A stretch of 23,930 nucleotides of DNA from a virus. Below the pieces are notes generated by a model, which saw only the letters and a program-made list of their open reading frames with translations, did no database searches and was not told where the DNA came from. The translations under genes were made by a program, and so were the position numbers. Positions within the stretch are counted from its first letter, which is position 1, and every line of letters starts with the position of its first letter. Positions 3,448 to 14,882 of the stretch are shown here, piece by piece. The stretch is taken from positions 1 through 23,930 of the IMG/VR virus record IMGVR_UViG_3300025132_000298. One strand, 5' to 3'.

Positions 3448-4008
3448 ATGGCAACATACGAAGCTACAAAATACGACTTCGATGGTGCTGCTATCACCGG
3501 CATTCAAGGTCTATCTACTGGCACTATCATACCATGGACTACTGCTTCAGCCCCTACAGGTTATCTTGCATGTGATGGATCCGCAGTATCAAGATCCACA
3601 TACTCTGCATTATTCGCAGTCATAGGTACAACTTATGGATCGGGAGATGGATCTTCAACTTTTAATGTTCCTGACACTGAGGGTAAAACAGTTAAGTCTG
3701 TCAGTAACAATGAGAATGCAGGTACCACTGGAGGAGCTAACACGGCAACTGCCAATTCAGGAAATTTAGCTAACCACACTCTTAACACTGCAGAATTAGG
3801 AAGCCACAATCATACTTTGAGTGGTATAGGAGATAACGCAGACTACAACCTTGGTGTAAGTAATGGTAACAGATCGACTAGACAAGGACCAAATTTAAAC
3901 TCAAACAATACTGGAGGCGGAGGAGCACACTCACATACTTTAAATGCTGGAGACGCAGTCAGCACTTTGCAACCTTACTTGGCATTAAATTATATAATTA
4001 AAACATAG
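3448..4008 (+). CDS. Tail collar-domain receptor-tip protein 1
   Basis: A 186-residue protein with a phage tail-collar domain (PF07484-type) at about 22-76: TGTIIPW, then PTGYLACDGSAVSRSTYSAL, FAVIGTTYG and GDGSSTFNVPD. The downstream half is variable and glycine/asparagine-rich, bracketed by two HxH motifs (H120/H122 and H161/H163), and ends in LQPYLALNYIIKT, as in collar-type adhesins related to T4 short tail fibres. In T4 fibre proteins comparable histidines bind metal ions in a trimeric tip; a similar role here is inference. This is the first of three paralogues, and its first 76 residues are nearly the same in all three. A modest GGAG lies about 10 nt before the ATG. Confidence 0.85.
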   Translation: MATYEATKYDFDGAAITGIQGLSTGTIIPWTTASAPTGYLACDGSAVSRSTYSALFAVIGTTYGSGDGSSTFNVPDTEGKTVKSVSNNENAGTTGGANTATANSGNLANHTLNTAELGSHNHTLSGIGDNADYNLGVSNGNRSTRQGPNLNSNNTGGGGAHSHTLNAGDAVSTLQPYLALNYIIKT

Positions 4009-4015
4009 GATAGAA

Positions 4016-4558
4016 ATGGCAACATACGAAGCAACAAGATACGATTACACCGGAGCGAATATTACGGGTTTAGTAGGTGTGGATACAGGAAGTATTATAC
4101 CGTGGCCTACAGCTAGTGCCCCAACAGGCTATCTAAATTGTGACGGAGCTGCTGTATCAAGAAGCACATATTCAGCTTTGTTCGCAGTTATTGGCACTAC
4201 GTACGGAACTGGTGATGGATCTTCAACTTTTAACGTTCCAAGTTTAACAGATAAAATTCCTGTTGGAAAATCAGATTCTATATCTTTAGCAAGCACAGGC
4301 GGGGCTAACACTGCAAATATTTCAAGCGTATCGGCAGGTAACACAACCATTGACACAAACACCATGGCTAGTCACGCTCACGGCACGGACAGCGGAAGTA
4401 ACAGAAACACAGGATCAAACGGAAACCAATGCCCTACTACATCCACGCAAAGTGCTAATAATTCAGGTGGTGGTAGTGCACATAATCATTCTGCGGATTC
4501 AGCTAGTGTGTCTTTACTACAGCCGACAATTGATATAAACTATGTTATCAAAACTTAG
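4016..4558 (+). CDS. Tail collar-domain receptor-tip protein 2
   Basis: A 180-residue paralogue of the preceding gene. The collar domain occupies about 22-75 (TGSIIPW, PTGYLNCDGAAVSRSTYSAL, GDGSSTFNVP). The variable C-terminal half has HxH motifs at H120/H122 and H156/H158 with a Gly/Ser/Asn/Thr-rich stretch between them, and the end LLQPTIDINYVIKT matches the other copies. The start follows the previous stop by 7 bases with a weak AGGAT site. It is followed by a tail assembly chaperone gene, suggesting a tip-plus-chaperone unit. It probably binds a host surface receptor, with different specificity from copies 1 and 3 given the divergent middle. Confidence 0.85.
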   Translation: MATYEATRYDYTGANITGLVGVDTGSIIPWPTASAPTGYLNCDGAAVSRSTYSALFAVIGTTYGTGDGSSTFNVPSLTDKIPVGKSDSISLASTGGANTANISSVSAGNTTIDTNTMASHAHGTDSGSNRNTGSNGNQCPTTSTQSANNSGGGSAHNHSADSASVSLLQPTIDINYVIKT

Positions 4559-4566
4559 GAGATAAA

Positions 4567-5076
4567 ATGAAAGTATCAGTAATAGTAGCAGATAAAACAG
4601 TAGTAATAGACGGGGCAGGTTACACTAATATGACCAGTCAGTCTTGTTGGAATTCAGTACCTGCAAATGTTCATGCTTATCAATACGATAGTGAAAAAGC
4701 TGATATGAGTGAAATAGAATACACAGATGGCACTCCGCACTCACCATGTGCTTTGAGTGATGTCCAAATTTTTATCGATGCCCATGCAGCCGAAAAACAA
4801 CTTATTGTTGACAATGAGCTTGCTGCTTTAAATACTTGGGAAAGAGTAAGAGCCGACAGAGATCAACTTTTGAGAGATAGTGACTATACACAAGTTGAAG
4901 ACTCTCCTTTAACAGATGAAAAAAAGGCAGAGTATTTAACTTACAGAATTAATTTAAGAAACTTACCTGCAGATTATTCTGCAGAAGAACCAAAAAACAT
5001 TACCACATATGAGGGTGATGTAATATTAGAAGCGGCTGATGGAAGTAAATCAGTTATAATTCCTATGCCTGCTTAA
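4567..5076 (+). CDS. Phage tail assembly chaperone-like protein 1
   Basis: The C-terminal part of this 169-residue protein (about 90-145) matches the phage tail assembly chaperone pattern (PF16778-type): NTWERVRADRDQLL, then SDYTQ.EDSPLTDEKK, then YRINLRNLPADYS. The N-terminal half has YDSEKADMSEIEYTDG, also found in modified form in the second chaperone gene at 5635, so the two are paralogues over most of their length. Known relatives help fold or trimerise tail-fibre adhesins and are encoded beside them, which fits the location between collar genes 2 and 3. A strong AGGAG is placed 6-7 nt before the ATG. Confidence 0.75.
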   Translation: MKVSVIVADKTVVIDGAGYTNMTSQSCWNSVPANVHAYQYDSEKADMSEIEYTDGTPHSPCALSDVQIFIDAHAAEKQLIVDNELAALNTWERVRADRDQLLRDSDYTQVEDSPLTDEKKAEYLTYRINLRNLPADYSAEEPKNITTYEGDVILEAADGSKSVIIPMPA

Positions 5077-5090
5077 TATAAGGATTAAAG

Positions 5091-5633
5091 ATGGCTACTT
5101 ATGAAGCAACTAAATACGATTTTGACGGGGCGAATCTAACAGGAATTGTCCTTGTAGATACGGGAACTATTATTCCTTGGCCATCTAGCTCTGTGCCCAC
5201 AGGATATTTAGATTGTGACGGATCAGCTGTTTCAAGATCTACTTATGCTGATCTATTCGCAGTTATTGGAACTACCTATGGAACAGGGGATGGCTCATCT
5301 ACATTTAATGTGCCAGATATAAAAGACAAAGTTCCTCAGTGTAAAACTGGAAATCTAGGAACTAACGCAGGAGCTAATTCTCAAACTTGTTCTGTAACCA
5401 TGGCAAACACAGCTTTATCTTTATCAACCATACCAAGTCACAACCATAGTGGTGGGCCAAAAAGGGGTAGTGATGGTATTGGTTTTGGTAACAACAGTAA
5501 TAGTATGAGATATCAAGGAAACTATTCTTGGCAAAATCAAGGAAGTGGTTCTGGACACAATCACTCAGCTAGTCCTGGAACAATTGATCCTAAACAACCA
5601 TTTGTAGCAACTTTTTTTATAATTAAAACTTAA
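5091..5633 (+). CDS. Tail collar-domain receptor-tip protein 3
   Basis: A 180-residue third paralogue. The collar domain lies at about 22-76 (TGTIIPW, PTGYLDCDGSAVSRSTYADL, GDGSSTFNVPD). The C-terminal half has HxH motifs at H117/H119 and H156/H158, flanking an insert unlike those of copies 1 and 2 (with Lys, Arg, Trp and several aromatic residues), and ends in FVATFFIIKT. Two cysteines (84 and 100) are peculiar to this copy. It has an AAGGA site and is followed one base later by a second chaperone gene, giving a second tip-plus-chaperone unit. It probably binds a distinct host receptor, although all three could also assemble together. Confidence 0.85.
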   Translation: MATYEATKYDFDGANLTGIVLVDTGTIIPWPSSSVPTGYLDCDGSAVSRSTYADLFAVIGTTYGTGDGSSTFNVPDIKDKVPQCKTGNLGTNAGANSQTCSVTMANTALSLSTIPSHNHSGGPKRGSDGIGFGNNSNSMRYQGNYSWQNQGSGSGHNHSASPGTIDPKQPFVATFFIIKT

Positions 5634-5634
5634 T

Positions 5635-6168
5635 ATGACTAAATACGTAATTTGTGCACAAGATATGATGGTGATGATCAATGACAGGCATAAACGATTT
5701 CCTGATTATACTCCAGCACCAAGCAAAGATATAAATTATTTTAGATTTGATACTGAAACTAATTCAGGACAAATAGAGTATTTGGATAGAGGAACTCAAC
5801 ATGAACCTATCACATCAATACCTGATGAATTTCAGGCAATAATAGATCATGCAGAAGCAGACCATGCAGAAGAAGAAAGACTAAATGCTTTGCCATACTA
5901 TGAAAAAGAAGGTTATGATAATTGGGATAGGGTTAGACGAGAAAGAAATTCTTTTCTTTATTATTTAGATCAATATATTATTCCGAAAGACTATCCTTAC
6001 AATGACGGAGAAAAAGAAAACTTAATATCTTTTAGAAAAAAACTTAGAGACATTCCTACAGATCACGCAAGCTCTGAACCAAAAAACATCAGATTTACAC
6101 CTGAACTTAATATTGAGATTGATGGGGTAACGACTGAGCTTCACGAACGTTGGAAAGAAAACGCTTAA
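5635..6168 (+). CDS. Phage tail assembly chaperone-like protein 2
   Basis: A 177-residue paralogue of the chaperone gene at 4567. It shares the N-terminal pattern (YFRFDTETNSGQIEYLDRG) and the C-terminal chaperone region at about 96-152 (NWDRVRRERNSFL, then FRKKLRDIPTDHASSEPKNI). It has an acidic stretch near 72-82 (HAEADHAEEE). No ribosome site is visible and the ATG lies one base after the stop of collar gene 3, so translation is probably coupled. It is the last plus-strand gene before the oppositely oriented island; its TAA directly abuts the stop of the minus-strand gene with no spacer. Confidence 0.7.
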   Translation: MTKYVICAQDMMVMINDRHKRFPDYTPAPSKDINYFRFDTETNSGQIEYLDRGTQHEPITSIPDEFQAIIDHAEADHAEEERLNALPYYEKEGYDNWDRVRRERNSFLYYLDQYIIPKDYPYNDGEKENLISFRKKLRDIPTDHASSEPKNIRFTPELNIEIDGVTTELHERWKENA

Positions 6169-6690
6169 TTATTCCAAAACAATATTAGCACTTAAACGAA
6201 TCCAAGGACAACCTTTGATGGGTGAATCTCCTGTGTGAAATTCATTTGAATTAAAGTAAACAACATTACCAGGTTTAAATTTATACTCATTACCGTCAAC
6301 CCAAAAAGAACCTAACCATGAGTCCTGCCATGCAGGTGTTAAAAAAACTAACAAACTATGTACAGGTCTTTCTCCATCATTATCTGTATGTAATTTTGTA
6401 ATAGAATCACTAAATGTTGCGTTTATAAAAACTCTAGCAATCTTGTAATTCATTCCGACTTTTTGTTTATCTGCTGTCTGTTTAATTCTAAAAACTAAAC
6501 CCTGGAAATAATCAAACCATTTCATACCTGGCTCTATATGTAAGTTACCGATCGTGGGAAATATTCTATCTATGCCTGGTGCTGGTCTTGCATGAGCGTT
6601 TAATGTCCAACCGTGAGTAGCTAACAATTCTGTATATAACCAATACAACTCTTTTGGACATATTACATTTTCGAACAAACGTGGTTTCAT
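6169..6690 (-). CDS. 2-oxoglutarate/Fe(II)-dependent oxygenase superfamily protein
   Basis: This 173-residue protein carries the motif set of non-haem iron oxygenases: H101-T-D103 as the HxD pair, H152 as the distal histidine (in FHTGDSP) and R165 as the likely 2-oxoglutarate-binding basic residue. The spacing and the surrounding beta strands (HSLLVFLTP, GSFWVDGNEYKFKPGNVVYF) fit a compact jelly-roll hydroxylase such as prolyl-hydroxylase-like enzymes. The substrate cannot be read from sequence. The ATG overlaps the TGA of the gene transcribed before it (ATGA, 6687-6690), implying coupling. Its stop abuts the plus-strand chaperone stop. Phage proteins of this type are common in marine viruses and mostly uncharacterised. 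Confidence 0.8.
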   Translation of the reverse strand: MKPRLFENVICPKELYWLYTELLATHGWTLNAHARPAPGIDRIFPTIGNLHIEPGMKWFDYFQGLVFRIKQTADKQKVGMNYKIARVFINATFSDSITKLHTDNDGERPVHSLLVFLTPAWQDSWLGSFWVDGNEYKFKPGNVVYFNSNEFHTGDSPIKGCPWIRLSANIVLE

Positions 6691-7475
6691 TTAAAATTCA
6701 TCTTATCACTTATTTTTTTATAAAAATTACTAAAGTTCATACCTTTATTCACAGATAATTGTTTGTGAGTCTTATTTAATTTTTTATCATTGTATGAAAC
6801 ATTTAAGTTAAAATTAGTTCTTTTGAACGGTACTGCTAAAACTATAGGATCACCTCTTTTAAAAACATATTCTTGACCTAGGTTGATTTTGTTCCAATTA
6901 ACAATAAATGGAAAATTTATCTCGTGCCATTTATCTGTATCTACTATAGCTTCAAAAGCATAATACGTATCAGAAACATCATTAATTGTAGGATTTAAAA
7001 ATAATGTTGAATAGCCAGGTGGCGTTTTTATAAGCCAAGGATTATTATATTTATTAGCATGGTTTGATTTCCATTTATCTATTAAAGGTACTTTATGAAC
7101 TTGTACTCTACCATGTTCATTAATTAATGTTGGTCCAGAATAATTAGGTGGGTAATCATATATGAAACTATCAAACCCATTTGGTCCAGTCATTTGTTTT
7201 ATTGAAATATCCACAGAGTTTAAAATATAATATCCATGTCTGTATATTTCTAATACAGGAGGACATTTTTTTATCGTAGGTTGGTTAATTAAATCTTGAT
7301 TATATGAAACCATTTTTTTGTACCACTCTGGTATTCGTTTCATAACAGGTATAGGCGGCAACCAAAAATCATCAGTTGAATTTTCTATTTTGTATTTATC
7401 CATCAATGAGAATTTAATCTCTTTTGAATACGGATTCTTTAACGAATTTTTTAAAGTTCGTAAAAACGAGATCAC
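6687..7475 (-). CDS. DUF6065-like phage protein, copy 1 (unknown function)
   Basis: I recognise this as a phage family of unknown function, tentatively DUF6065. Landmarks are PPIPVMKRIPEWYKKM near the N-terminus, TIKKCPPVLEIY.HGY, PWLIKTPPGYSTLFLNPT, then VDTDKWHEINFPF and KRGDPIVLAVPFKR. I place the start at GTG 7475, which has an AGGAGG 4 nt upstream and gives 262 residues; an open frame extends to a TTG at 7490, and an ATG at 7403 would remove the EIKFSL strand that seems part of the domain. With the GTG start it overlaps the preceding gene by 62 bp. It is a diverged paralogue of that gene. No catalytic motif is evident, and its function with the oxygenases is unknown. Confidence 0.7.
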   Translation of the reverse strand: MISFLRTLKNSLKNPYSKEIKFSLMDKYKIENSTDDFWLPPIPVMKRIPEWYKKMVSYNQDLINQPTIKKCPPVLEIYRHGYYILNSVDISIKQMTGPNGFDSFIYDYPPNYSGPTLINEHGRVQVHKVPLIDKWKSNHANKYNNPWLIKTPPGYSTLFLNPTINDVSDTYYAFEAIVDTDKWHEINFPFIVNWNKINLGQEYVFKRGDPIVLAVPFKRTNFNLNVSYNDKKLNKTHKQLSVNKGMNFSNFYKKISDKMNFK

Positions 7476-8109
7476 CTTTCCTCCTCTCAAATTCTGATTT
7501 TTTTCTATTTTCTATTTTAAATTTAAACGACCTATTTGTACAAGGTGTTACTAAAAACAAAGGGTCATTTTGTTTTATTATAATATGGTCTTGGTTTTTA
7601 TAAACATTCATAAAAAAATTAAGCTCTTCATGACCTCCAATTATTCCAGGGACTACTTGAAATTTGGGAAAATGCCATGACGGAGAGTGTATTACAACAG
7701 ATTCTTTTTTACAATCCAAATACCAACCAAAAGTAAATTTTAAGGTGAAATCAAGATTAGCACTACTAGGGACGTATTGTGCATGTTGAGCTACGGAGTG
7801 TTGATGCACAAAATTATGCTTGTTACCATATTTGCCTACAAACGACATCGCCCTCCTATTTTTGTCTACAACTATTTCAATATCACAAGGTGAAGAAACT
7901 AACATAGATCTTTTATATAAATTCATAAACCCAGAGCATGTCTTAATAGTTCTATGTGATTCTAAAAATTTACTGACTCCTGGGTCAAAATATTTAGTAG
8001 GTATTGTTTTATAATATGTAGGAAGATTTTTTGGAAAAATTGTAAAGTATTCCTCTATGATATCTTTGTCCCAATGTTCAGTATAGATAGTAAATTTTTT
8101 TAAGAACAT
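7414..8109 (-). CDS. DUF6065-like phage protein, copy 2 (diverged paralogue)
   Basis: A 231-residue protein distantly related to its neighbour: RTIKTCSGFMNLYKR aligns with TIKKCPPVLEIYRHG, SSPCDIEI with NSVDISI, and QNDPLFLVTPCTNRSFKF with RGDPIVLAVPFKRTNFNL. It is histidine-rich in the middle (HQHSVAQHAQY, about 103-113). No Shine-Dalgarno precedes the ATG at 8109, but a TATAAT (complement of 8118-8123) lies 8 nt upstream. The gene overlaps the end of the preceding oxygenase gene by 10 bp. Function is unknown; the order oxygenase-DUF-DUF-oxygenase suggests they work in one pathway, which is inference. Confidence 0.65.
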   Translation of the reverse strand: MFLKKFTIYTEHWDKDIIEEYFTIFPKNLPTYYKTIPTKYFDPGVSKFLESHRTIKTCSGFMNLYKRSMLVSSPCDIEIVVDKNRRAMSFVGKYGNKHNFVHQHSVAQHAQYVPSSANLDFTLKFTFGWYLDCKKESVVIHSPSWHFPKFQVVPGIIGGHEELNFFMNVYKNQDHIIIKQNDPLFLVTPCTNRSFKFKIENRKKSEFERRKGDLVFTNFKKFVKESVFKRD

Positions 8110-8690
8110 AAATCAAAATTATAAGCGACACTAATTCTAGGGCCATCACTTTCTTGTCTTTCAACACAATGTCTTAGCCATGACGGAAATATAATTAATG
8201 TGCCTTGTGCAGGTGTAAAAATAACTTTGTCCCAAGTAATTGGATTGTTAGAATTTGAATGTGGTTTTGTAGGTAAATCATATATAGGTGATGCAAAGAA
8301 AACTCTTGCATCTTTATCTGGATCTGATTTTAAAAAATAAATACAAGAGACATGATGCATGGCATGTGAGTGAAATTCTTGAAAATCGTATTTGTAATAT
8401 ACATTAAACCAACCACTTTTAGCTTTCAAATTTTTATAACCCATAATCTTTCCATGAGCTATTGCTTTTGTTCTAACCCAATTGTTTAGATTATGAAATT
8501 TTTTCATATCTAACACATCCACCATATCAAGAGTGTTAAATGTGGAACTAGAAATCCAACCAGTCGTTACATCATTTTTTCTTTTTTTTGATATTTCAAT
8601 ACAATAATCCGCAGCATCTTTACAAAGATTTTCGTTTTCTTGATATTTATCTGTGCTTATCATCACAGGAAAAAACGGTTGTGTAAACAT
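8100..8690 (-). CDS. Putative 2OG-Fe(II) oxygenase (TIGR02466/PF13759-like)
   Basis: This 196-residue protein resembles the TIGR02466-type putative 2OG-Fe(II) oxygenases: SGWFNVYYKYDFQEFHSHA (about 92-110), a CIYFLKSDPD strand, and a strong C-terminal block PAQGTLIIFPSWLRHCVE with H174 and R185 followed by ISVAYNF. The first ligand region reads H107-S-H109 with more histidines at 112-113 rather than HxD, so activity is less certain than for the other two enzymes. The ATG at 8690 has no Shine-Dalgarno; a TGtTATATG -10-like box ends 7 nt upstream, pointing to a leaderless transcript. It is first in the minus-strand island operon. Confidence 0.75.
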   Translation of the reverse strand: MFTQPFFPVMISTDKYQENENLCKDAADYCIEISKKRKNDVTTGWISSSTFNTLDMVDVLDMKKFHNLNNWVRTKAIAHGKIMGYKNLKAKSGWFNVYYKYDFQEFHSHAMHHVSCIYFLKSDPDKDARVFFASPIYDLPTKPHSNSNNPITWDKVIFTPAQGTLIIFPSWLRHCVERQESDGPRISVAYNFDLCS

Positions 8691-8720
8691 TTGATATCAT
8701 ATAACACGTTTGAGAATAAT
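8691..8720 (+). promoter_or_regulatory. Predicted promoter of the plus-strand oxygenase gene
   Basis: TTGATA (8691-8696) and AATAAT (8715-8720) are separated by 18 bp, each 5/6 to the sigma-70 consensus. The ATG at 8729 begins 8 nt after the -10 and lacks a Shine-Dalgarno, so the transcript is predicted to be leaderless or nearly so. The whole element overlaps the divergent promoter on the other strand, so the two could not be bound by polymerase at the same time. Confidence 0.5.
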
Positions 8721-8726
8721 TTTGAA
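8698..8726 (-). promoter_or_regulatory. Predicted promoter of the minus-strand oxygenase operon
   Basis: Read on the minus strand: TTCAAA (8726-8721), 17 bp, then TATATG (8703-8698) preceded by an extended -10 TG (8706-8705). The start codon at 8690 begins 7 nt after the -10, so transcription would begin at or next to the ATG. The element physically interlocks with the plus-strand promoter at 8691-8720. Prediction by consensus only. Confidence 0.5.
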
Positions 8727-8728
8727 GT

Positions 8729-9262
8729 ATGAAATTAATTTACAATATACCAGATAAACTTTGGTGGATTCATGATTTTCTAGATAAAGATCATTATAAA
8801 ACTATTCACAATTCAATTATAAAAGAAAGAAGAGATATAAATTTACAATCTGCAATTGATGTCTGGGATAAAAATTTACATAATAATTTAGTGGCTCCAC
8901 AAAGGGTGGATGTATCTGCATATCCACCTATAGAAAAATTAAAATGGAAATTGCTAAATAATTCTTTTTTTAAATGTGAAGATATTTCTTCAATTAACAC
9001 ATCTATACATTATATGAAAAAGAGCTCAGGTATAAACTGGCATAGTGATAATAAATGGAAATATGGAGCTACTTATTATATCAACACTAAGTGGAATATA
9101 CACTGGGGTGGCGAATTCATGTTTGCTGATACTGATGCATATGGTTTCTTACCTATTGTAGGTAACTCATTAGTTATAGTTAAAGCCCCTTTAGACCATA
9201 AAGTAAACCCTGTATTAAGTAATATTATGCCTAGAATGTCAGTGCAAATGTTTATGAAGTAA
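8729..9262 (+). CDS. 2-oxoglutarate/Fe(II) oxygenase, prolyl-hydroxylase-like
   Basis: A 177-residue protein with a clear oxygenase signature: H105-S-D107 (INWHSDNKWKYG), a GATYYINTKWNIHWGGEFMF segment typical of P4H-like jelly rolls, H157 (APLDHKV) and R169 (MPRMSVQMF). The N-terminal third (WWIHDFLDKDHYKTIHNSI) is the usual lead-in helix. The substrate is not predictable, and hydroxylation of a protein or small molecule are both possible. It is divergently transcribed from the minus-strand island across a 38 bp gap and lies 22 bp before the tail nozzle gene. It belongs to a different subfamily from the other two oxygenases, so the three are not recent duplicates. Confidence 0.8.
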   Translation: MKLIYNIPDKLWWIHDFLDKDHYKTIHNSIIKERRDINLQSAIDVWDKNLHNNLVAPQRVDVSAYPPIEKLKWKLLNNSFFKCEDISSINTSIHYMKKSSGINWHSDNKWKYGATYYINTKWNIHWGGEFMFADTDAYGFLPIVGNSLVIVKAPLDHKVNPVLSNIMPRMSVQMFMK

Positions 9263-9270
9263 GATAAATA

Positions 9271-9279
9271 TGTTATAAT
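9271..9279 (+). promoter_or_regulatory. Perfect extended -10 just before the nozzle start codon
   Basis: TGTTATAAT is an exact TGn-TATAAT extended -10, with the hexamer at 9274-9279. The ATG at 9285 begins only 5 nt after it, with no Shine-Dalgarno in between or upstream. The -35 region (TTTATG, 9251-9256, 17 bp spacing) is weak, as extended -10 promoters allow. Transcription would begin at or within a base or two of the ATG. Confidence 0.5.
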
Positions 9280-9284
9280 TCTGA

Positions 9285-11435
9285 ATGCCATTAACAAACG
9301 TACAGATAAGACCAGGATTCAATAAACAAGTCACTGATGTGGGAGCAGAAGGTCAATGGATAGATGGTGACAATGTAAGATTTAGATACGGACTTCCTGA
9401 AAAAATAGGTGGTTGGGAGCAATTAACAGCTGACACGTTGGTCGGAGCTGTAAGGCAACAACACATATATGCAGATTTAGATGGAAATGTTTACGCTGTG
9501 CTTGGTACTAATAGAACTTTAATCGTATATTATGGTGGAGCCTTTTATGACATTACTCCACTAGCTACTGCTATAACTGGAGCTACCTTTACCACAGTAA
9601 ATGCTAGTCCTACTGTAACTGTCAATAAATCTGTACATGGTCTAGAAGCTGGCGACTTGTTTACATTTACCTCAGTCACCCCTCCAACTGGAGCTGGATA
9701 CACAGCTGCAAATTTTGAAGATACAACTTTTGAAGTAGTATCAGTTCCTACCATTGACACTTTTGAAATTACCATGGCTACTAACGCTGGCACAAGTGTA
9801 TCAGCGAGCGGAGCTGCAACAATAAATCCTTATGAAAAAATTGGACCACTTACTCAGTCCGCTGGATACGGATGGGGAACATCAACATATGGAGGAGCTT
9901 CTGGAGTATTAGGAACTCTTAACGGATCTTTAAGTGACGATACTGCTGGAACCGGTGGTTCAGGAACTAGCATTACGCTTACATCTACTTCAGGTTTTCC
10001 AACTTCGGGTGTTATAAAAGTAGGTGCGGAATTTATTTCTTACACTGGGATATCTTCAAATGATTTAACAGGCATAACTAGAGATGTAGCAGGCACAAGA
10101 TCTGCACATTCATCTGGTGCGTCAGTAGAATTTTTTACCGCTTGGGGTGATCAATCTTTAACATCTAATGTTATTTTAGATCCTGCGAGCTGGTCATTAG
10201 ATAATTTTGGGCAAATATTAATTGCTACAATAAAAAATGGTAAAACGTTTCAATGGAACCCTATTGCATCAACTCCTGCAGCTCTAACAACACGAGCAAC
10301 ACTAGTGTCTAATGCTCCAACTTCATCTGTAATGACTATTGTTTCTGAAAGAGACAGACATTTGTTAGTATTAGGGACAGAGACCACTATTGGAAATACA
10401 GCTACACAAGATAAAATGTTTATAAGATTTTCTGATCAAGAAAATATTTCAGATTATACCCCTACATCGATTAACACTGCAGGGACTTTAAGATTAGATT
10501 CAGGTACAAAAATAGTAGGAGCAGCGAAGGGTAAGGATTATATTTTAATACTAACCGACATAGCAGCATACATAATTCAATTTGTTGGACCACCTTTTAC
10601 TTTTTCTATAAGACAAGTTGGATCTAATTGTGGAGCAATAGGTAAAGACTCTATAAGGTATGTTGATGGTAAAGTTTATTGGATGGGGCAAGCAGGTGGT
10701 TTTTTTGTTTTTGACGGTACAGTTAAGAGCTTACCATGTTTAGTTGAAGATTTTGTTTTCACAAGCAAAGGAGACAATCTAGGAATTAACTATTCAAGCG
10801 GAGAGTTGGTTTATGCAGGTCTTAATACTCTGTATTCAGAAATCAATTGGTTTTATGTAAAATCAGGAGCTTCAAAAATTGATAGAATAGTAACATATAA
10901 TTATGCTGAAAATACTTGGACTACTGGGACTTTAGCAAGAACCACTTGGTCTGATGCTACTTTGTTTGAAGTTCCGTATGCAACTGAGTTTAACTCAACA
11001 GGAACACCTAGTTTCCCTGTGGTGCAAGGAGTTACGAATTCAAATGGTTCCTCAATTTATTATGCTCATGAGATTGGTAATAATCAAGTAGATCATTCTG
11101 GAAATAAAACAGCGATTGTAGCATTTATTGAATCTGGTTCTTTTGATTTAGATGTTGAAGGTAACGGTCAATTTTTTATGTCAATTAGAAGATTTGTACC
11201 TGATTTTAAATTAATATCTGGAAATGCACAAGTGACCATAAATCTAAGAGACTTTCCAACGGACACCGAAACCTCATCTCCACTAGGGCCATTTACAATC
11301 ACAAGCAGCACTGATAAAGTTGATACCCGTGCAAGATCTAGATTTGCTAGTTTAAAAGTTGCTAACACTTCTACTGATGAAAGTTGGAGATATGGCACAT
11401 TTAGGGCAGACATACAACCTGATGGACAAAGATAA
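9285..11435 (+). CDS. Tail nozzle / DNA-stabilisation protein (T7 gp12 / P22 gp10-like)
   Basis: This 716-residue protein begins with the hallmark segment IRPGFNKQVTDVGAEGQWID, then NVRFRYGLPEKIGGWEQL, found in tail-tube/nozzle proteins of short-tailed marine phages. A second signature lies near 400-490 (GTKIVGAAKGKDYILILTD, then VGSNCGAIGKDSI, VYWMGQAGGFFVFDGT and LPCLVEDFVF), consistent with a beta-propeller nozzle of the P22 gp10 DNA-stabilising type. An inserted beta-rich stretch near 95-165 (FTTVNASPTVTVNKSVHGLEAGD) may be an added domain. The protein would cap the tail below the adaptor and help retain DNA. No Shine-Dalgarno is seen; start signals point to a leaderless mRNA. The next gene starts on the last base of its stop. 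Confidence 0.8.
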   Translation: MPLTNVQIRPGFNKQVTDVGAEGQWIDGDNVRFRYGLPEKIGGWEQLTADTLVGAVRQQHIYADLDGNVYAVLGTNRTLIVYYGGAFYDITPLATAITGATFTTVNASPTVTVNKSVHGLEAGDLFTFTSVTPPTGAGYTAANFEDTTFEVVSVPTIDTFEITMATNAGTSVSASGAATINPYEKIGPLTQSAGYGWGTSTYGGASGVLGTLNGSLSDDTAGTGGSGTSITLTSTSGFPTSGVIKVGAEFISYTGISSNDLTGITRDVAGTRSAHSSGASVEFFTAWGDQSLTSNVILDPASWSLDNFGQILIATIKNGKTFQWNPIASTPAALTTRATLVSNAPTSSVMTIVSERDRHLLVLGTETTIGNTATQDKMFIRFSDQENISDYTPTSINTAGTLRLDSGTKIVGAAKGKDYILILTDIAAYIIQFVGPPFTFSIRQVGSNCGAIGKDSIRYVDGKVYWMGQAGGFFVFDGTVKSLPCLVEDFVFTSKGDNLGINYSSGELVYAGLNTLYSEINWFYVKSGASKIDRIVTYNYAENTWTTGTLARTTWSDATLFEVPYATEFNSTGTPSFPVVQGVTNSNGSSIYYAHEIGNNQVDHSGNKTAIVAFIESGSFDLDVEGNGQFFMSIRRFVPDFKLISGNAQVTINLRDFPTDTETSSPLGPFTITSSTDKVDTRARSRFASLKVANTSTDESWRYGTFRADIQPDGQR

Positions 11436-12247
11436 TGATTTATAATCCAGTAATGAACAGAGATGGCTTAATATCTACTGCAGGCACTAGTGATTTAACA
11501 AGACTAATTAATGAACGACAAAGCCAAGAGGCTGGTATAGTGCCAAGAAACATGGATATATTTGCACAAAGATTTAGTCAAGTCCCCACAGGCATCGCTC
11601 AAATCAACAACAGTAAAAGTTATATTCAAAATAAATTAATGGATAAACTTAAAAATTTTAAACCACCTAGCTTAGCTTTAGCTTCTGCTTTACTTCCTAA
11701 AGAAGATCCAGTTATAACTCAATCCAGAGATTATTTTTCTGGTTTATATGGTCTTGATGACATAGGCCGAATCGCACAAGGCGATCCTAATGATCCAAAT
11801 CTTATGGCAGGTTATAACCCTATTAGTGGTGGTCTTCTTAATATGTTAACCAAAGGTAAATTTGGTGATCCTACAAATGTTGGTTTAGATAGAGCATATC
11901 AAAAAAGAATAGACACCATTCGTAACAAGGGAATCCCTAGATTACTTAAGGCAGGTAAAGACCCATCTAACTTACAAAATAGATTAACTGAATTACTTGC
12001 AATGCAGGCTAAAGATAATGCAGCTATACAACAAATAAGATTAGATAATGCTACGAAACAACAAAAACAAACTATAAAAGATATGAAAGCTGGAAAAATA
12101 AATGCTGGTATGCCGGAACAACCATCTGGTGGAGGTGGTCGTGATACTGCCCCTATGCAAACATTTTCAGCTCCTACAAAACAAGGGCAAAGCCCAAGAG
12201 GTTCAATGTCTGGACAAAATATTCCAGATAGAAATAGAAATAGATAA
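11435..12247 (+). CDS. Hypothetical virion-associated protein (270 aa)
   Basis: I recognise no domain. The protein is hydrophilic, with a helical Gln/Lys/Asp-rich stretch at about 180-220 (LLAMQAKDNAAIQQIRLDNA) and a disordered Gly/Pro/Ser/Asn-rich C-terminus (about 225-270) ending in NRNRNR. A segment near 95-140 (SRDYFSGLYGLDDIGRIAQGD) looks conserved-like. The ATG overlaps the nozzle TAA by one base (TAATG). Located between nozzle and small structural genes, it is probably a virion or assembly protein, but this is positional inference. Confidence 0.6.
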   Translation: MIYNPVMNRDGLISTAGTSDLTRLINERQSQEAGIVPRNMDIFAQRFSQVPTGIAQINNSKSYIQNKLMDKLKNFKPPSLALASALLPKEDPVITQSRDYFSGLYGLDDIGRIAQGDPNDPNLMAGYNPISGGLLNMLTKGKFGDPTNVGLDRAYQKRIDTIRNKGIPRLLKAGKDPSNLQNRLTELLAMQAKDNAAIQQIRLDNATKQQKQTIKDMKAGKINAGMPEQPSGGGGRDTAPMQTFSAPTKQGQSPRGSMSGQNIPDRNRNR

Positions 12248-12411
12248 TGGCTAAAATAAATATTAGTGTTCCTGAACCAAAAGAACAATATGAGTCTTCT
12301 AACCAAAGACAAATTATTGAAGCAATTGATACATTAAAAAATCAATTAAATTTTTCTTTTCAATTTGATTTGAAAGAAGAACAAGATAGTTTTAATTGGT
12401 TTATATCATGA
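12247..12411 (+). CDS. Small hypothetical phage protein (54 aa)
   Basis: A 54-residue frame runs from an ATG that overlaps the preceding stop by one base (TAATG) to a TGA at 12409-12411 that overlaps the next ATG (ATGA). It begins MAKINISVPEPKEQYESSNQ and continues with a helical RQIIEAIDTLKNQL and an aromatic C-terminus (FNWFIS). The stop/start coupling at both ends, good coding character and a familiar marine-phage pattern (PEPKEQYESSNQRQI) argue for a real gene. The likely form is a short helical virion or assembly factor; function unknown. Confidence 0.65.
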   Translation: MAKINISVPEPKEQYESSNQRQIIEAIDTLKNQLNFSFQFDLKEEQDSFNWFIS

Positions 12412-12749
12412 CCATACAATATAAAAATCAAGGTATTAATTTAACAACAACTGGCACAGTTAGTGTGTTAACCGCACCATCAGATGCAACTGTTTTGGTA
12501 AAACAAATACAAATAAACAATGGGTCTGGAAGTGGTGTTAATTTAAATGTTCAATTTACTGACACATCAGCATCATCGACTTTTAGAATATTTAATGAAG
12601 CCATTACAGGAGCTGCAACAAAAGACATAATTAATTATACTCTTGTGCTTGAGGCAGGTGATATAATTAAAATGACAGCTGGTACGGCAAACGAAATACA
12701 AGGGGTAATATCCTATGCTTTATTAGATAGGTCTCAACAAAATGGCTAG
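12408..12749 (+). CDS. Small beta-rich virion protein (113 aa)
   Basis: The protein has alternating hydrophobic strands (TVSVLTAPSDATVLVKQIQINN, VNLNVQFTDTS, LVLEAGDIIKMTAG, VISYALLD), typical of small jelly-roll or Ig-like decoration proteins in marine phages. I place the start at ATG 12408, coupled by ATGA to the 54-residue gene, rather than at a TTG four codons earlier. The final codons overlap the start of the next small gene by 8 bp. The role in the virion is unproven. Confidence 0.65.
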   Translation: MTIQYKNQGINLTTTGTVSVLTAPSDATVLVKQIQINNGSGSGVNLNVQFTDTSASSTFRIFNEAITGAATKDIINYTLVLEAGDIIKMTAGTANEIQGVISYALLDRSQQNG

Positions 12750-12867
12750 AAAATTTAAAGCTTTTGTTGAAAGGCCAAAGCCTAGAAAAAGGCCTAGAAG
12801 ACATAAGAAAAAACTTTCAAAAAATGAGAAAAGAGACTATAAGAAATATAATCGACAAGGAAGATAA
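12742..12867 (+). CDS. Very basic small protein (41 aa)
   Basis: An ATG at 12742 lies inside the end of the preceding gene in another frame and opens a 41-codon frame that stops at 12865-12867. The product (start MARKFKAFVERPKPRKRPRR) has about 20 Lys/Arg residues in 41, with few acidic residues. It fills the gap between the beta-rich protein and the gene at 12870, which has its own AAGGAAG site within this gene's 3' end. It may bind DNA or the acidic interior of the capsid, but that is inferred only from charge. Length is below usual annotation limits. Confidence 0.55.
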   Translation: MARKFKAFVERPKPRKRPRRHKKKLSKNEKRDYKKYNRQGR

Positions 12868-12869
12868 TT

Positions 12870-13070
12870 ATGAGTGATGAACTACCAAGAATACCTGCTG
12901 AGGCTAAGGAAGTAATTAAAAATAAAAAAACAGGAAAGGTTTATGAAACCAAAGCTGAATTTGACGCTGATGTAGCCGATCCAAACACTGATACTACCGC
13001 AGATGATTTTTCACAACATGTAGAAATTACTGTAGCAAAACTTACATTGTTTGGCAGCACTAAAAAATAA
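12870..13070 (+). CDS. Small hypothetical phage protein (66 aa)
   Basis: A 66-residue acidic-to-neutral protein with a central KNKKTGKVYETKAEFDADVADP segment, which resembles small marine-phage proteins that often sit next to virion genes. It has a good ribosome site (AAGGAAG) upstream. Its TAA overlaps the ATG of the glycosyltransferase gene by one base, so both are probably translated from one message. No function is recognised. Confidence 0.6.
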   Translation: MSDELPRIPAEAKEVIKNKKTGKVYETKAEFDADVADPNTDTTADDFSQHVEITVAKLTLFGSTKK

Positions 13071-14011
13071 TGCAACCAAGAGGCGGCACGGAACTACAAC
13101 TGGAAATGTTGTACAAACATTGTGATAATAAGTTGTTAGATCAAGTTCAGATTTGCACTTCAATACCATACAAAGTTCCTTTAGATCCAAATAAATTAAA
13201 TATATTGTGGCAAAAAAATTCATACGATCAACCTAACTTATTCGACTTTTTTAATAATCCTGTAAGACATAAGGAGTATGACTGGTATGTATTTAACTCA
13301 CATTGGAATTATGAAAAGTTTAGACATTACTTTAAGATTCCTACTGAAAAAAGTATGGTGATAAAAAATGGGTCTATACATTTTCCTGAAAGAAAAATTT
13401 ATAAAAAAGGTGATCCTATAAAATTAATATATCATTCTACTCCTTGGAGAGGTTTGAGCGTGATATTAGGAGCTATGCAATATATCAAAACTCCAGGCGT
13501 TACTCTTGATGTTTATTCAAGCACAAAAATATATGGTCAAGAATTTTATGATAGCAGTAATCATTTGTATCAACCACTATTTGATCAAGCAGAACAATTA
13601 AAAAATGTAAATTACATAGGCTACAAACCAAATGAATATATTTTAGAAAGAATCACTGATTATCAAATGTGGACACATCCTAGTGTTTTTGAAGAGACGT
13701 TTGGTATTGGAGCTTTAGAAGCAATGAGTTCTGGTTTATATATGATAACAACAAACTTTGGAGCTTTATTTGAAACTTGTTCTGAATGGCCTATCTATGT
13801 AAATTATACTAACAACTTACCAGCTTTAGCTGAAAGATTTGCAAACGCTATTGATGTGGCTTGTAGTCATCTACATGAAGACTACGTACAAGAACATTTA
13901 GAAGAACAACAAAGATTTGCAAAAAAATTTTATTCATGGCAAAAGAAGGGAAAAGAATGGGAAGCATTTTTGAAAGGAGCTTTACATGAGCGACAATCCA
14001 CAGGGTTATAA
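13070..14011 (+). CDS. GT-B glycosyltransferase, GT4-like
   Basis: A 313-residue glycosyltransferase. The N-terminus is unusually short and begins almost directly with R-GGTELQ (residues 4-10), the glycine-rich donor-side loop. The C-terminal half has YHSTPWRGL (121-129), NVNYIGYKPNEYILE, and the GT4 E-x7-E motif with E209 and E217 (EETFGIGALEAMSSG), which binds the nucleotide-sugar donor. An in-frame TAA at 13061 rules out a longer N-terminus. The ATG overlaps the previous stop (TAATG), and the next gene overlaps its end by 26 bp. The acceptor is unknown: phage virion, host surface or DNA are candidates. It sits with a second glycosyltransferase between nozzle and internal virion genes. Confidence 0.8.
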   Translation: MQPRGGTELQLEMLYKHCDNKLLDQVQICTSIPYKVPLDPNKLNILWQKNSYDQPNLFDFFNNPVRHKEYDWYVFNSHWNYEKFRHYFKIPTEKSMVIKNGSIHFPERKIYKKGDPIKLIYHSTPWRGLSVILGAMQYIKTPGVTLDVYSSTKIYGQEFYDSSNHLYQPLFDQAEQLKNVNYIGYKPNEYILERITDYQMWTHPSVFEETFGIGALEAMSSGLYMITTNFGALFETCSEWPIYVNYTNNLPALAERFANAIDVACSHLHEDYVQEHLEEQQRFAKKFYSWQKKGKEWEAFLKGALHERQSTGL

Positions 14012-14882
14012 TCACGATGAGGTAAGAAAACCAATTTGGAAAAAAGAACCCTCTGTCAAACATAAAACATATACTAATGAGGACACTTACCAAACTATTA
14101 AAGAAGTAAACAACACAACAAACGAAAAAGGTGATATACATCTATTTATAGGAACACCTTGTCATTCTGAAGTTTCTTTACATTACGTAAATGCTTTAAT
14201 TAGTTTAACTAAATATTGTTTTAAAAGAGAAGTACCAATAGAATTTTCATTAATAAAATCATCGCTTGTCACTCAGGGCAGAAACCTTTGTGTATCAGGT
14301 TTTTTAGATTCAGACGCTACACACTTGTTATTTATAGACTCTGATATATTTTTATACGCATCCACCGTGTTTAAAATGATTGAGGCAAATAAGGATGTTA
14401 TTTCTGTTCCTTATCCTCTTAAAGCTTTTATGTGGGATAAAACTTTACAGCAAGTTAAAGAGGGTAATATAAAAACGTCAGAACAATTAGCTCAAGCTGG
14501 TAATACCTATCCAATGAGAGTGCCAGACCGTGAGGACATACAAATTAAAGATGGTGTAATAGAGGTAACACACAGCCCAACAGGAGCAATGTTAATTAAA
14601 AGAAGTGTATTTGAAAAAATGATCAAAGAATATCCACATAAAGATATTAAGCAAAACACCGTAATTAACGGTAAGTTGGTCGCTAAGAAAAATATGTACA
14701 ATTTTTTTGATACCATACATGACCCAATTACTAAAACATATCTTGGCGAAGATTTTGGTTTTTGTAAGCTCTGGAAGGATATAGGTGGCAAATGTCATGC
14801 ATATATCAACGATGAAATCACTCATGTGGGAGAGCACCAATATACAGGTAAATTTGCTGATGAGTTGATAAAGATTAAGTAA
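13986..14882 (+). CDS. GT-A-like glycosyltransferase
   Basis: A 298-residue protein with GT-A features: a strand and turn IHLFIGTPCHSEVSLHYVNAL (51-71), SSLVTQGRNLCVSGFL (92-107), and LLFIDSDIF (114-122), whose D118-x-D120 is the likely metal/sugar-nucleotide DxD. A second block YLGEDFGFCKLWKDIGG (252-268), followed by ITHVGEH (H280), looks like the acceptor/catalytic end of this fold. The start codon overlaps the previous gene by 26 bp with AAGGAG about 6 nt upstream. With the GT4-like neighbour it could add two sugars in sequence. Donor and acceptor are unknown. The N-terminal 45 residues are polar and probably flexible. Confidence 0.75.
   Translation: MSDNPQGYNHDEVRKPIWKKEPSVKHKTYTNEDTYQTIKEVNNTTNEKGDIHLFIGTPCHSEVSLHYVNALISLTKYCFKREVPIEFSLIKSSLVTQGRNLCVSGFLDSDATHLLFIDSDIFLYASTVFKMIEANKDVISVPYPLKAFMWDKTLQQVKEGNIKTSEQLAQAGNTYPMRVPDREDIQIKDGVIEVTHSPTGAMLIKRSVFEKMIKEYPHKDIKQNTVINGKLVAKKNMYNFFDTIHDPITKTYLGEDFGFCKLWKDIGGKCHAYINDEITHVGEHQYTGKFADELIKIK

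What the first reader, a model, noticed from the sequence alone, without database searches (positions are those of the whole stretch)
6169..14882. Oxygenases and glycosyltransferases flank the tail nozzle: possible hydroxylation-then-glycosylation pathway
Three dissimilar 2OG/Fe(II) oxygenase-like genes (6169, 8100, 8729), two DUF6065-like genes and two glycosyltransferases (13070 GT-B, 13986 GT-A) all lie within virion genes on either side of the nozzle. Hydroxylation followed by glycosylation of the new hydroxyl group is established for collagen-type proteins and for hypermodified bases. The proposal that this phage hydroxylates and then glycosylates its own fibres or capsid, or a host envelope molecule, is inference from co-location. 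The DUF6065-like pair between the oxygenases would be candidate partners.
Basis: partly seen in the sequence, partly recalled or inferred. Interest (0 to 1): 0.7.

Follow-up and report, generated by a model that had tools for sequence, protein, structure and literature searches.

The report
Fibre-linked oxygenase cassette in pelagiphage
A marine virus of SAR11-type bacteria carries a swappable set of oxygen-using enzymes that changes together with its tail-fibre genes, while its two sugar-transferring enzymes are a separate fixed feature, so the proposed single 'hydroxylate then add sugar' pathway is not supported as such.

Summary
The window is a fragment of an HTVC023P-type podovirus. OX2 and OX3 are 2OG-Fe(II) oxygenases; OX1 is a weaker match. 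DUFa is DUF6065, DUFb a divergent paralogue. The GT-B/GT-A pair is confirmed. Oxygenases and glycosyltransferases (GTs) in this lineage were reported before (PMC9599517).

Across 80 related loci the two sets behave differently. The GT pair is core: present in 33/33 informative loci and tracking the nozzle (r=0.76-0.79). The oxygenases are cargo: 33 clusters, 0-8 genes per locus, with orientation tracking tail-fibre type perfectly (46/46 loci, four parsimony switches). Complete genomes exist with oxygenases but no GTs, and with both GTs but neither tested oxygenase family.

New leads: DUF6065 always sits beside an oxygenase, is fused to Cupin_8/JmjC domains in bacteria, and models as a dUTPase-like fold. 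GT-A resembles hydroxylysine GTs, yet its T4-type relatives sit beside the sliding clamp.

Best reading: a fibre-linked oxygenase cassette, probably modifying fibre protein; substrate unproven. GT acceptor open (DNA, virion or envelope).

The parts
3448..6168 (+). Tail-fibre module: three collar-domain genes (3448, 4016, 5091) and two fibre-chaperone-like genes (4567, 5635)
   Evidence: PF07484 9e-24 for 3448; PF16778 2.4e-5 (just under its cut-off) and phrog_4912 'tail fiber assembly' 2.6e-5 for 5635; 4016 and 5091 cluster with 3448
6169..6690 (-). OX1, probable 2OG-Fe(II) oxygenase (weakest assignment)
   Evidence: phrog_274 3.8e-7 (labelled DNA endonuclease V), Cupin_2 0.0012 below cut-off; iterated profile joins other oxygenases; profile-profile 47% with cluster 0; HxD...H...R pattern by eye
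6687..7490 (-). DUFa, DUF6065 protein with dUTPase-like predicted fold
   Evidence: PF19541 1.4e-8; phrog_7084 3e-35; AF2 pLDDT 75; Foldseek top hits are dUTPases, E 5e-4; only weak sequence support
7414..8109 (-). DUFb, divergent DUF6065 paralogue lacking the motif-III-like Asp
   Evidence: phrog_7084 2.5e-13; alignment A3, 20% identity to DUFa; pair seen only in close relatives
8100..8690 (-). OX2, 2OG-Fe(II) oxygenase of the PF13759 type (HxH...H...R)
   Evidence: PF13759 2.5e-17; phrog_81 6e-38; HxHP conserved in the PF13759 relatives 3bvc and 2rg4
8729..9262 (+). OX3, 2OG-Fe(II) oxygenase (PF13640), directly upstream of the nozzle gene
   Evidence: PF13640 1.2e-6, above cut-off; conserved WHxD...H...R in 18 aligned relatives; found upstream of the nozzle only in loci with collar-type fibres
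9285..11435 (+). Tail nozzle / DNA-stabilisation-like protein (reference gene)
   Evidence: phrog_3287 8e-85; 62% to HTVC023P; solved chain 9nwi_Y 2e-6, six copies
13070..14011 (+). GT-B, GT group 1 glycosyltransferase, core gene
   Evidence: PF00534 6e-9; homologues in HTVC023P, HTVC027P and T4-type phages; 33/33 loci
13986..14882 (+). GT-A, DxD glycosyltransferase, core gene, overlaps the GT-B gene by 26 bases
   Evidence: phrog_1574 1e-33; AF2 pLDDT 80; Foldseek: STIV A197, LH3, COLGALT1, mimivirus R699

Best explanation
The minus-strand block OX1-DUFa-DUFb-OX2 plus OX3 is an exchangeable oxygenase cassette of HTVC023P-type pelagiphages that moves together with the tail-fibre module. Shown: its composition turns over fast, its layout follows fibre type, and DUF6065 is a partner of oxygenases. 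Inferred: the oxygenases hydroxylate late proteins made beside them, most likely the fibre/adhesin parts (and DUF6065 assists, for example by binding the substrate), which tunes fibre folding or receptor binding. The downstream GT-B/GT-A pair is a separate, fixed late function of this phage group; its acceptor (DNA, virion protein or envelope) is open. So there are two independent modification modules side by side, not one two-step pathway.
For: Collar-type fibre and minus-strand oxygenases co-occur in 16/16 loci and are both absent in 30/30, with four inferred switches on the nozzle tree. Collar-negative loci instead show a fixed order DUF6065-oxygenase-oxygenase-nozzle on the plus strand in most cases (22 of 30 have DUF6065). 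A single-cell marine alphaproteobacterial contig with a collar gene carries the same kind of block, four Pfam-detectable oxygenases, DUF6065 and one member of cluster 1. GTs follow the nozzle (r=0.76 and 0.79) while oxygenase cluster 0 hardly does (0.29). 023Pt_psg01 and DSL-LC04 have oxygenases without GTs. DUF6065 is next to an oxygenase in 31/31 cases and fused to Cupin_8/JmjC in bacteria.
Against: Physical adjacency alone could make fibre and cassette move together without a shared substrate. The number of independent switches is small (four by parsimony, some on weakly supported branches), and many loci are near-duplicates. No hydroxylation motif or collagen-like repeat was found in window fibres. 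Some oxygenases lie downstream of the nozzle (15 of 31 loci), not beside fibres. No expression or proteomic data.
Confidence: 0.4

Rival explanations
1. DNA or nucleotide hypermodification: oxygenases hydroxylate bases (or nucleotides), the GT pair glycosylates them after replication, carbamoyltransferases or DUF6065 act in the same pathway, protecting the genome from host nucleases.
For: Homologues of both GTs co-occur in T4-type phages phiM12, Cr30 and DLP6. In 75 of 80 retrieved relatives GT-A lies beside a sliding-clamp (gp45) gene; T4 alpha-GT binds gp45 (PMC13216743). DUF6065 models as a dUTPase-like fold. A carbamoyltransferase is in 8 of 31 spans, and one phage carbamoyltransferase acts on 5hmC (PMC8670742).
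Against: No thymidylate synthase/hydroxymethylase family (PF00303) in HTVC023P, HTVC027P or 023Pt_psg01, nor in two 55-59 kb relatives. No TET/JBP or T4-type DNA-GT Pfam match for the window proteins. Oxygenases and GTs are separable, and oxygenase sets follow fibres, not GTs. In PMC8670742 unmodified contigs also carry carbamoyltransferases, next to group 1 GTs. The clamp synteny sample was taken with a phiM12 query and is biased to T4-type phages.
Confidence: 0.2
2. Host-directed activity: the oxygenases (and perhaps the GTs) alter a host envelope molecule or a small metabolite during infection, as auxiliary metabolic genes.
For: PMC9599517 classes these genes as auxiliary metabolic genes. 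The large turnover (33 clusters) and the mixed company (carbamoyltransferase, cupins, a sugar-binding-region GT) suit varied small substrates.
Against: Genes lie inside the late virion block and exchange with fibres. No nucleotide-sugar or lipid pathway genes were seen in the window.
Confidence: 0.2
3. One reading: oxygenases hydroxylate a virion protein and the GT pair glycosylates the new hydroxyl, in the manner of LH3/COLGALT1.
For: Fold comparison of GT-A gives LH3, COLGALT1 and mimivirus R699 among the best solved matches (E about 1e-5 to 1e-7). Within this lineage nearly all GT-bearing spans also hold oxygenases (29/31).
Against: Independent occurrence in both directions. The GT pair is unchanged while the oxygenase set turns over completely. 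Two lineage members, L067 and L074, have GT-B and no recognised oxygenase in the span. TM-scores to LH3 are low (0.36-0.41 on the query). No collagen-like sequence.
Confidence: 0.12

Closest known systems
2OG-Fe(II) oxygenases and GTs of HTVC023P-type pelagiphages (Wittmers et al. 2022, PMC9599517)
   Same: Same phage lineage; eight non-orthologous oxygenases, often near each other, and three GTs were reported.
   Different: That paper did not link oxygenase layout to fibre type or show that the GT pair is core. Its 'ferrochelatase' partner, as annotated in HTVC023P gp67 and 023Pt_psg01, falls in oxygenase cluster 1 here (HxD...H).
LH3 (PLOD3) / COLGALT1 hydroxylysine modification
   Same: Oxygenase plus DxD GT-A; GT-A model has similar fold.
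   Different: Separate genes with separate inheritance; no collagen-like substrate in the window; fold match of low TM-score.
T4-type DNA glycosylation and TET/JBP hypermodification of phage DNA
   Same: A pair of phage GTs; GT-A relatives beside the sliding clamp in T4-type phages.
   Different: No PF00303 in the HTVC023P-type genomes tested; no TET/JBP or T4 alpha/beta-GT family match; GTs lie in the late virion block.
Bacterial DUF6065-Cupin_8/JmjC fusion proteins
   Same: DUF6065 joined to an oxygenase-type domain.
   Different: Phage DUF6065 is a stand-alone gene beside PF13640/PF13759 oxygenases, and matches only the middle of the Pfam model.

Membership tests
2OG-Fe(II) oxygenase superfamily (OX2, OX3) | Match to a curated family model above cut-off | tested here: met
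   PF13759 63.5 bits vs 27; PF13640 29.8 vs 27
2OG-Fe(II) oxygenase superfamily (OX1) | Match to a curated family model above cut-off | tested here: inconclusive
   No Pfam model over its cut-off; iterated profile and 47% profile-profile match only
2OG-Fe(II) oxygenase superfamily | Metal triad and Arg: HxD/E...H...R | tested here: inconclusive
   OX3 cluster: WHxD...H...R conserved; OX1 by eye; OX2 has HxH instead of HxD, as do PF13759 relatives of solved structure
2OG-Fe(II) oxygenase superfamily | 2OG- and Fe-dependent hydroxylation activity | not testable with these tools
   Needs assay
DUF6065 (PF19541) | Curated cut-off | tested here: met
   DUFa 35 bits vs 26.6; DUFb only by phrog_7084
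dUTPase superfamily (DUF6065) | Fold | tested here: inconclusive
   AF2 pLDDT 75; the 50 matches listed are dUTPases or dCTP deaminase, E from 5e-4, TM on target mostly 0.45-0.67
dUTPase superfamily (DUF6065) | Conserved sequence motifs I-V | tested here: not met
   Profile-profile probability under 4%; only motif III/IV-like stretch aligned, P about 0.01; Tyr of motif III absent. No PDB sequence match
Phage DNA hypermodification (TET/JBP plus GT; T4 HMC plus GT) | TET/JBP or T4 alpha/beta-GT or TAGT family proteins | tested here: not met
   No such Pfam match for OX1-3 or the GTs at E up to 1
Phage DNA hypermodification | dCMP hydroxymethylase/thymidylate synthase family (PF00303) in the genome | tested here: not met
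   Absent in HTVC023P, HTVC027P, 023Pt_psg01 and in the records of L011 and L014; the window's own genome is a 24 kb fragment
Phage DNA hypermodification | Modified nucleosides in virion DNA | not testable with these tools
   Needs LC-MS
Hydroxylation-then-glycosylation pathway (LH3/COLGALT1-like) | Oxygenase and GT inherited together | tested here: not met
Hydroxylation-then-glycosylation pathway (LH3/COLGALT1-like) | GT of the hydroxylysine GT fold | tested here: inconclusive
   Best matches include LH3/COLGALT1 but TM-score only 0.36-0.41 on the query
Hydroxylation-then-glycosylation pathway (LH3/COLGALT1-like) | Collagen-like Gly-X-Y substrate | tested here: not met
   No (GXX)6 run in any window protein; a few Gly-rich fibre genes in relatives

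The most novel reading that the evidence does not exclude
Phages swap sets of hydroxylases together with their tail fibres, so that receptor-binding proteins are post-translationally oxidised by dedicated, fibre-specific enzymes, with DUF6065 (a dUTPase-fold protein without evident dUTPase function) acting as substrate adaptor of 2OG oxygenases in phages and bacteria.
Probability: 0.2. Interest if true: 0.8.

Novelty: new variant of a known kind. Interest (0 to 1): 0.45.

Why it matters
HTVC023P-type phages are widespread viruses of SAR11, one of the ocean's most abundant bacterial groups. Post-translational oxidation of phage fibres would be a new layer of host-range control. The results also give a testable role for DUF6065, a family without known function, and suggest that a published 'ferrochelatase' partner gene is itself an oxygenase. 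They show that the sugar-transfer pair should be studied as a separate, fixed function of this group.

Tried and rejected
DUF6065 as a cryptic oxygenase: rejected, profile comparison with oxygenase clusters 0, 1 and 3 gave at most 1.2% and the model is dUTPase-like. DUF6065 as a proven dUTPase: not accepted, sequence support is weak. Collagen-like fibres as substrate: not found. Neighbourhood of bacterial DUF6065: mixed, no common pathway. dUTPase relatives via viral scan with phiM12 dUTPase: only one hit, replaced by bacterial dUTPases. Promoter/terminator scan of the cassette: no excess over shuffles. Literature on restriction resistance of phages that carry both GT homologues: the DLP6 paper gives no clear result, the Ochrobactrum OC paper reports only a GANTC methyltransferase, and nothing usable was found in the hit list for Cr30. 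DUF6065 in the literature: no paper. The per-locus oxygenase counts use iterated profiles; the call for cluster 1 is backed by a 76% profile match and the HxD...H pattern, some small clusters are less certain.
Full report
What is there. The window is a fragment of an HTVC023P-type podovirus: its nozzle-like protein is 62% identical to that of Pelagibacter phage HTVC023P and 56% to HTVC027P over the aligned parts. OX2 and OX3 pass the Pfam cut-offs for 2OG-Fe(II) oxygenases; OX1 does not, and its assignment rests on iterated profiles, a modest profile match and a HxD...H...R pattern. DUFa is DUF6065, DUFb a divergent paralogue. GT-B and GT-A are a GT group 1 enzyme and a DxD enzyme. The block from about 6.0 to 9.0 kb is poorer in G+C (28-31%) than the fibre and nozzle genes on either side (36-40%), as expected of an acquired segment.

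Prior knowledge. Wittmers et al. 2022 (PMC9599517) already reported eight non-orthologous 2OG-Fe(II) oxygenases, often near each other, and three glycosyltransferases in this phage type, as well as 'ferrochelatase' partners. The product annotated 'putative ferrochelatase' in HTVC023P (gp67) and 023Pt_psg01 falls in our cluster 1, whose conserved HxD...H pattern and 76% profile match to the PF13640-type cluster make it an oxygenase rather than a ferrochelatase.

The GTs are core. I fetched 80 IMG/VR loci by the nozzle protein and mapped genes. In all 33 loci long enough to reach the gene after them (g21), GT-B and GT-A are present and adjacent. Their pairwise distances follow those of the nozzle (r=0.76 and 0.79).

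The oxygenases are cargo. Between the fibre gene g4 and GT-B there are 0 to 8 oxygenase genes per locus, in 33 sequence clusters, on either strand; other cargo includes DUF6065, carbamoyltransferases (8 of 31 spans), cupins and unknowns. 29 of 31 complete spans hold at least one. Distances of the largest cluster hardly follow the nozzle (r=0.29), with the caveat that this cluster mixes paralogues.

The cassette follows the fibre. On a nozzle tree of 46 loci, minus-strand oxygenases occur in all 16 loci with a collar-type fibre gene and in none of 30 without; this joint state changes four times by parsimony. OX3 upstream of the nozzle is found only in collar-type loci. Collar-negative loci mostly carry the order DUF6065-oxygenase-oxygenase-nozzle on the plus strand. 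The window is the only one of the 46 with collar fibre and DUF6065 together. Adjacency alone could explain joint exchange, so this links the cassette to the fibre module but does not prove the fibre is the substrate.

Independence of the two sets. The complete genome 023Pt_psg01 has oxygenases but no homologue of either GT. DSL-LC04 has an oxygenase and no GT; CRP-902 has neither. phiM12 and Cr30 have both GTs and neither PF13640 nor PF13759; DLP6 has both GTs and three PF13640 places. The phages with GTs but no oxygenase of these families are distant relatives; within the lineage only two short loci (L067, L074) have GT-B without a recognised oxygenase.

DUF6065. In these phages every DUF6065 gene (31 of 31) lies next to an oxygenase or in a DUF pair flanked by one. 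In 385 alphaproteobacterial genomes 41 have a match above the curated cut-off; of 10 such proteins scanned, seven of them chosen because their reading frames are long, three are fused to a Cupin_8/JmjC domain and one to SapC. This is independent support for an oxygenase partnership. The AF2 model (pLDDT 75, pTM 0.70) matches dUTPases, with E from 5e-4. Sequence support is weak: the only aligned stretch is the motif III/IV region at P about 0.01, and the motif III Tyr is missing. I therefore treat the fold as probable and dUTPase activity as unsupported. In haloviruses the homologous gene lies between tail-fibre genes and thymidylate synthase or ribonucleotide reductase, which does not decide the matter.

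What the GT pair does. Two lines conflict. The GT-A model (pLDDT 80) has as best solved matches STIV A197, LH3, COLGALT1 and mimivirus R699 (E 4e-8 to about 3e-5, but TM on the query only 0.35-0.41), that is, hydroxylysine glycosyltransferases among others. Its phage relatives of T4 type, however, lie beside the sliding clamp in 75 of 80 retrieved loci, a place that recalls T4 alpha-glucosyltransferase, which binds gp45 (PMC13216743). That sample was drawn with a phiM12 query and is biased to T4-type phages. No thymidylate synthase/hydroxymethylase family gene occurs in the HTVC023P-type genomes tested. The acceptor stays open.

Verdict. The co-location is a real lineage feature but reflects two modules with different inheritance. 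The best-supported reading is an exchangeable oxygenase cassette tied to tail-fibre type, most likely acting on fibre proteins (inferred), next to a fixed GT pair of unknown acceptor. The genes' presence is known; the fibre linkage, the DUF6065-oxygenase fusions and the ferrochelatase correction appear new as far as the papers searched here show.

Limits. Loci are the best 80 of at least 595 matches, many from the same surveys and some nearly identical; records are mostly fragments. Oxygenase labels for small clusters rest on iterated profiles. The window's own record is only 23,930 bases, so nothing can be said about the rest of this genome.

Noticed in passing
L082:10295-10915 (HTVC023P gp67) and L083:12051-12707: Annotated 'putative ferrochelatase', but belongs to oxygenase cluster 1 (HxD...H pattern); the published ferrochelatase-oxygenase partnership may be two oxygenases.
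   Followed up: yes
window 3448-6168: Three collar-domain fibre genes interleaved with two chaperone-like genes; most relatives have one of each (L078 also has three collar genes).
   Followed up: partly
L175-L254: Relatives of GT-A in T4-type phages lie beside the sliding-clamp gene gp45 in 75 of 80 loci; function undescribed in the papers searched.
   Followed up: partly
L134:571-2220, L138:532-2247, L128:1471-3168; L133:691-2340: Bacterial DUF6065 domains fused to Cupin_8/JmjC (three) or SapC (one).
   Followed up: partly
L017:14051-15550 and cluster 9: Carbamoyltransferase genes (PF16861/PF02543) among the cargo in 8 of 31 complete spans.
   Followed up: partly
L107:2522-7648: A contig from a marine alphaproteobacterial single cell carries the same kind of block (four Pfam-detectable oxygenases, DUF6065, a cluster-1 gene) beside a collar fibre gene: the cassette occurs outside the nozzle-defined set or in another phage.
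   Followed up: partly
window 8100-8690 and PF13759 relatives: PF13759 members keep HxH where classical 2OG oxygenases have HxD, also in the solved proteins 3bvc and 2rg4: possibly a different metal site.
   Followed up: partly
HTVC027P record 3502-4191: A second GT-A-like match in two pieces within one open frame, far from the core GT pair.
   Followed up: no
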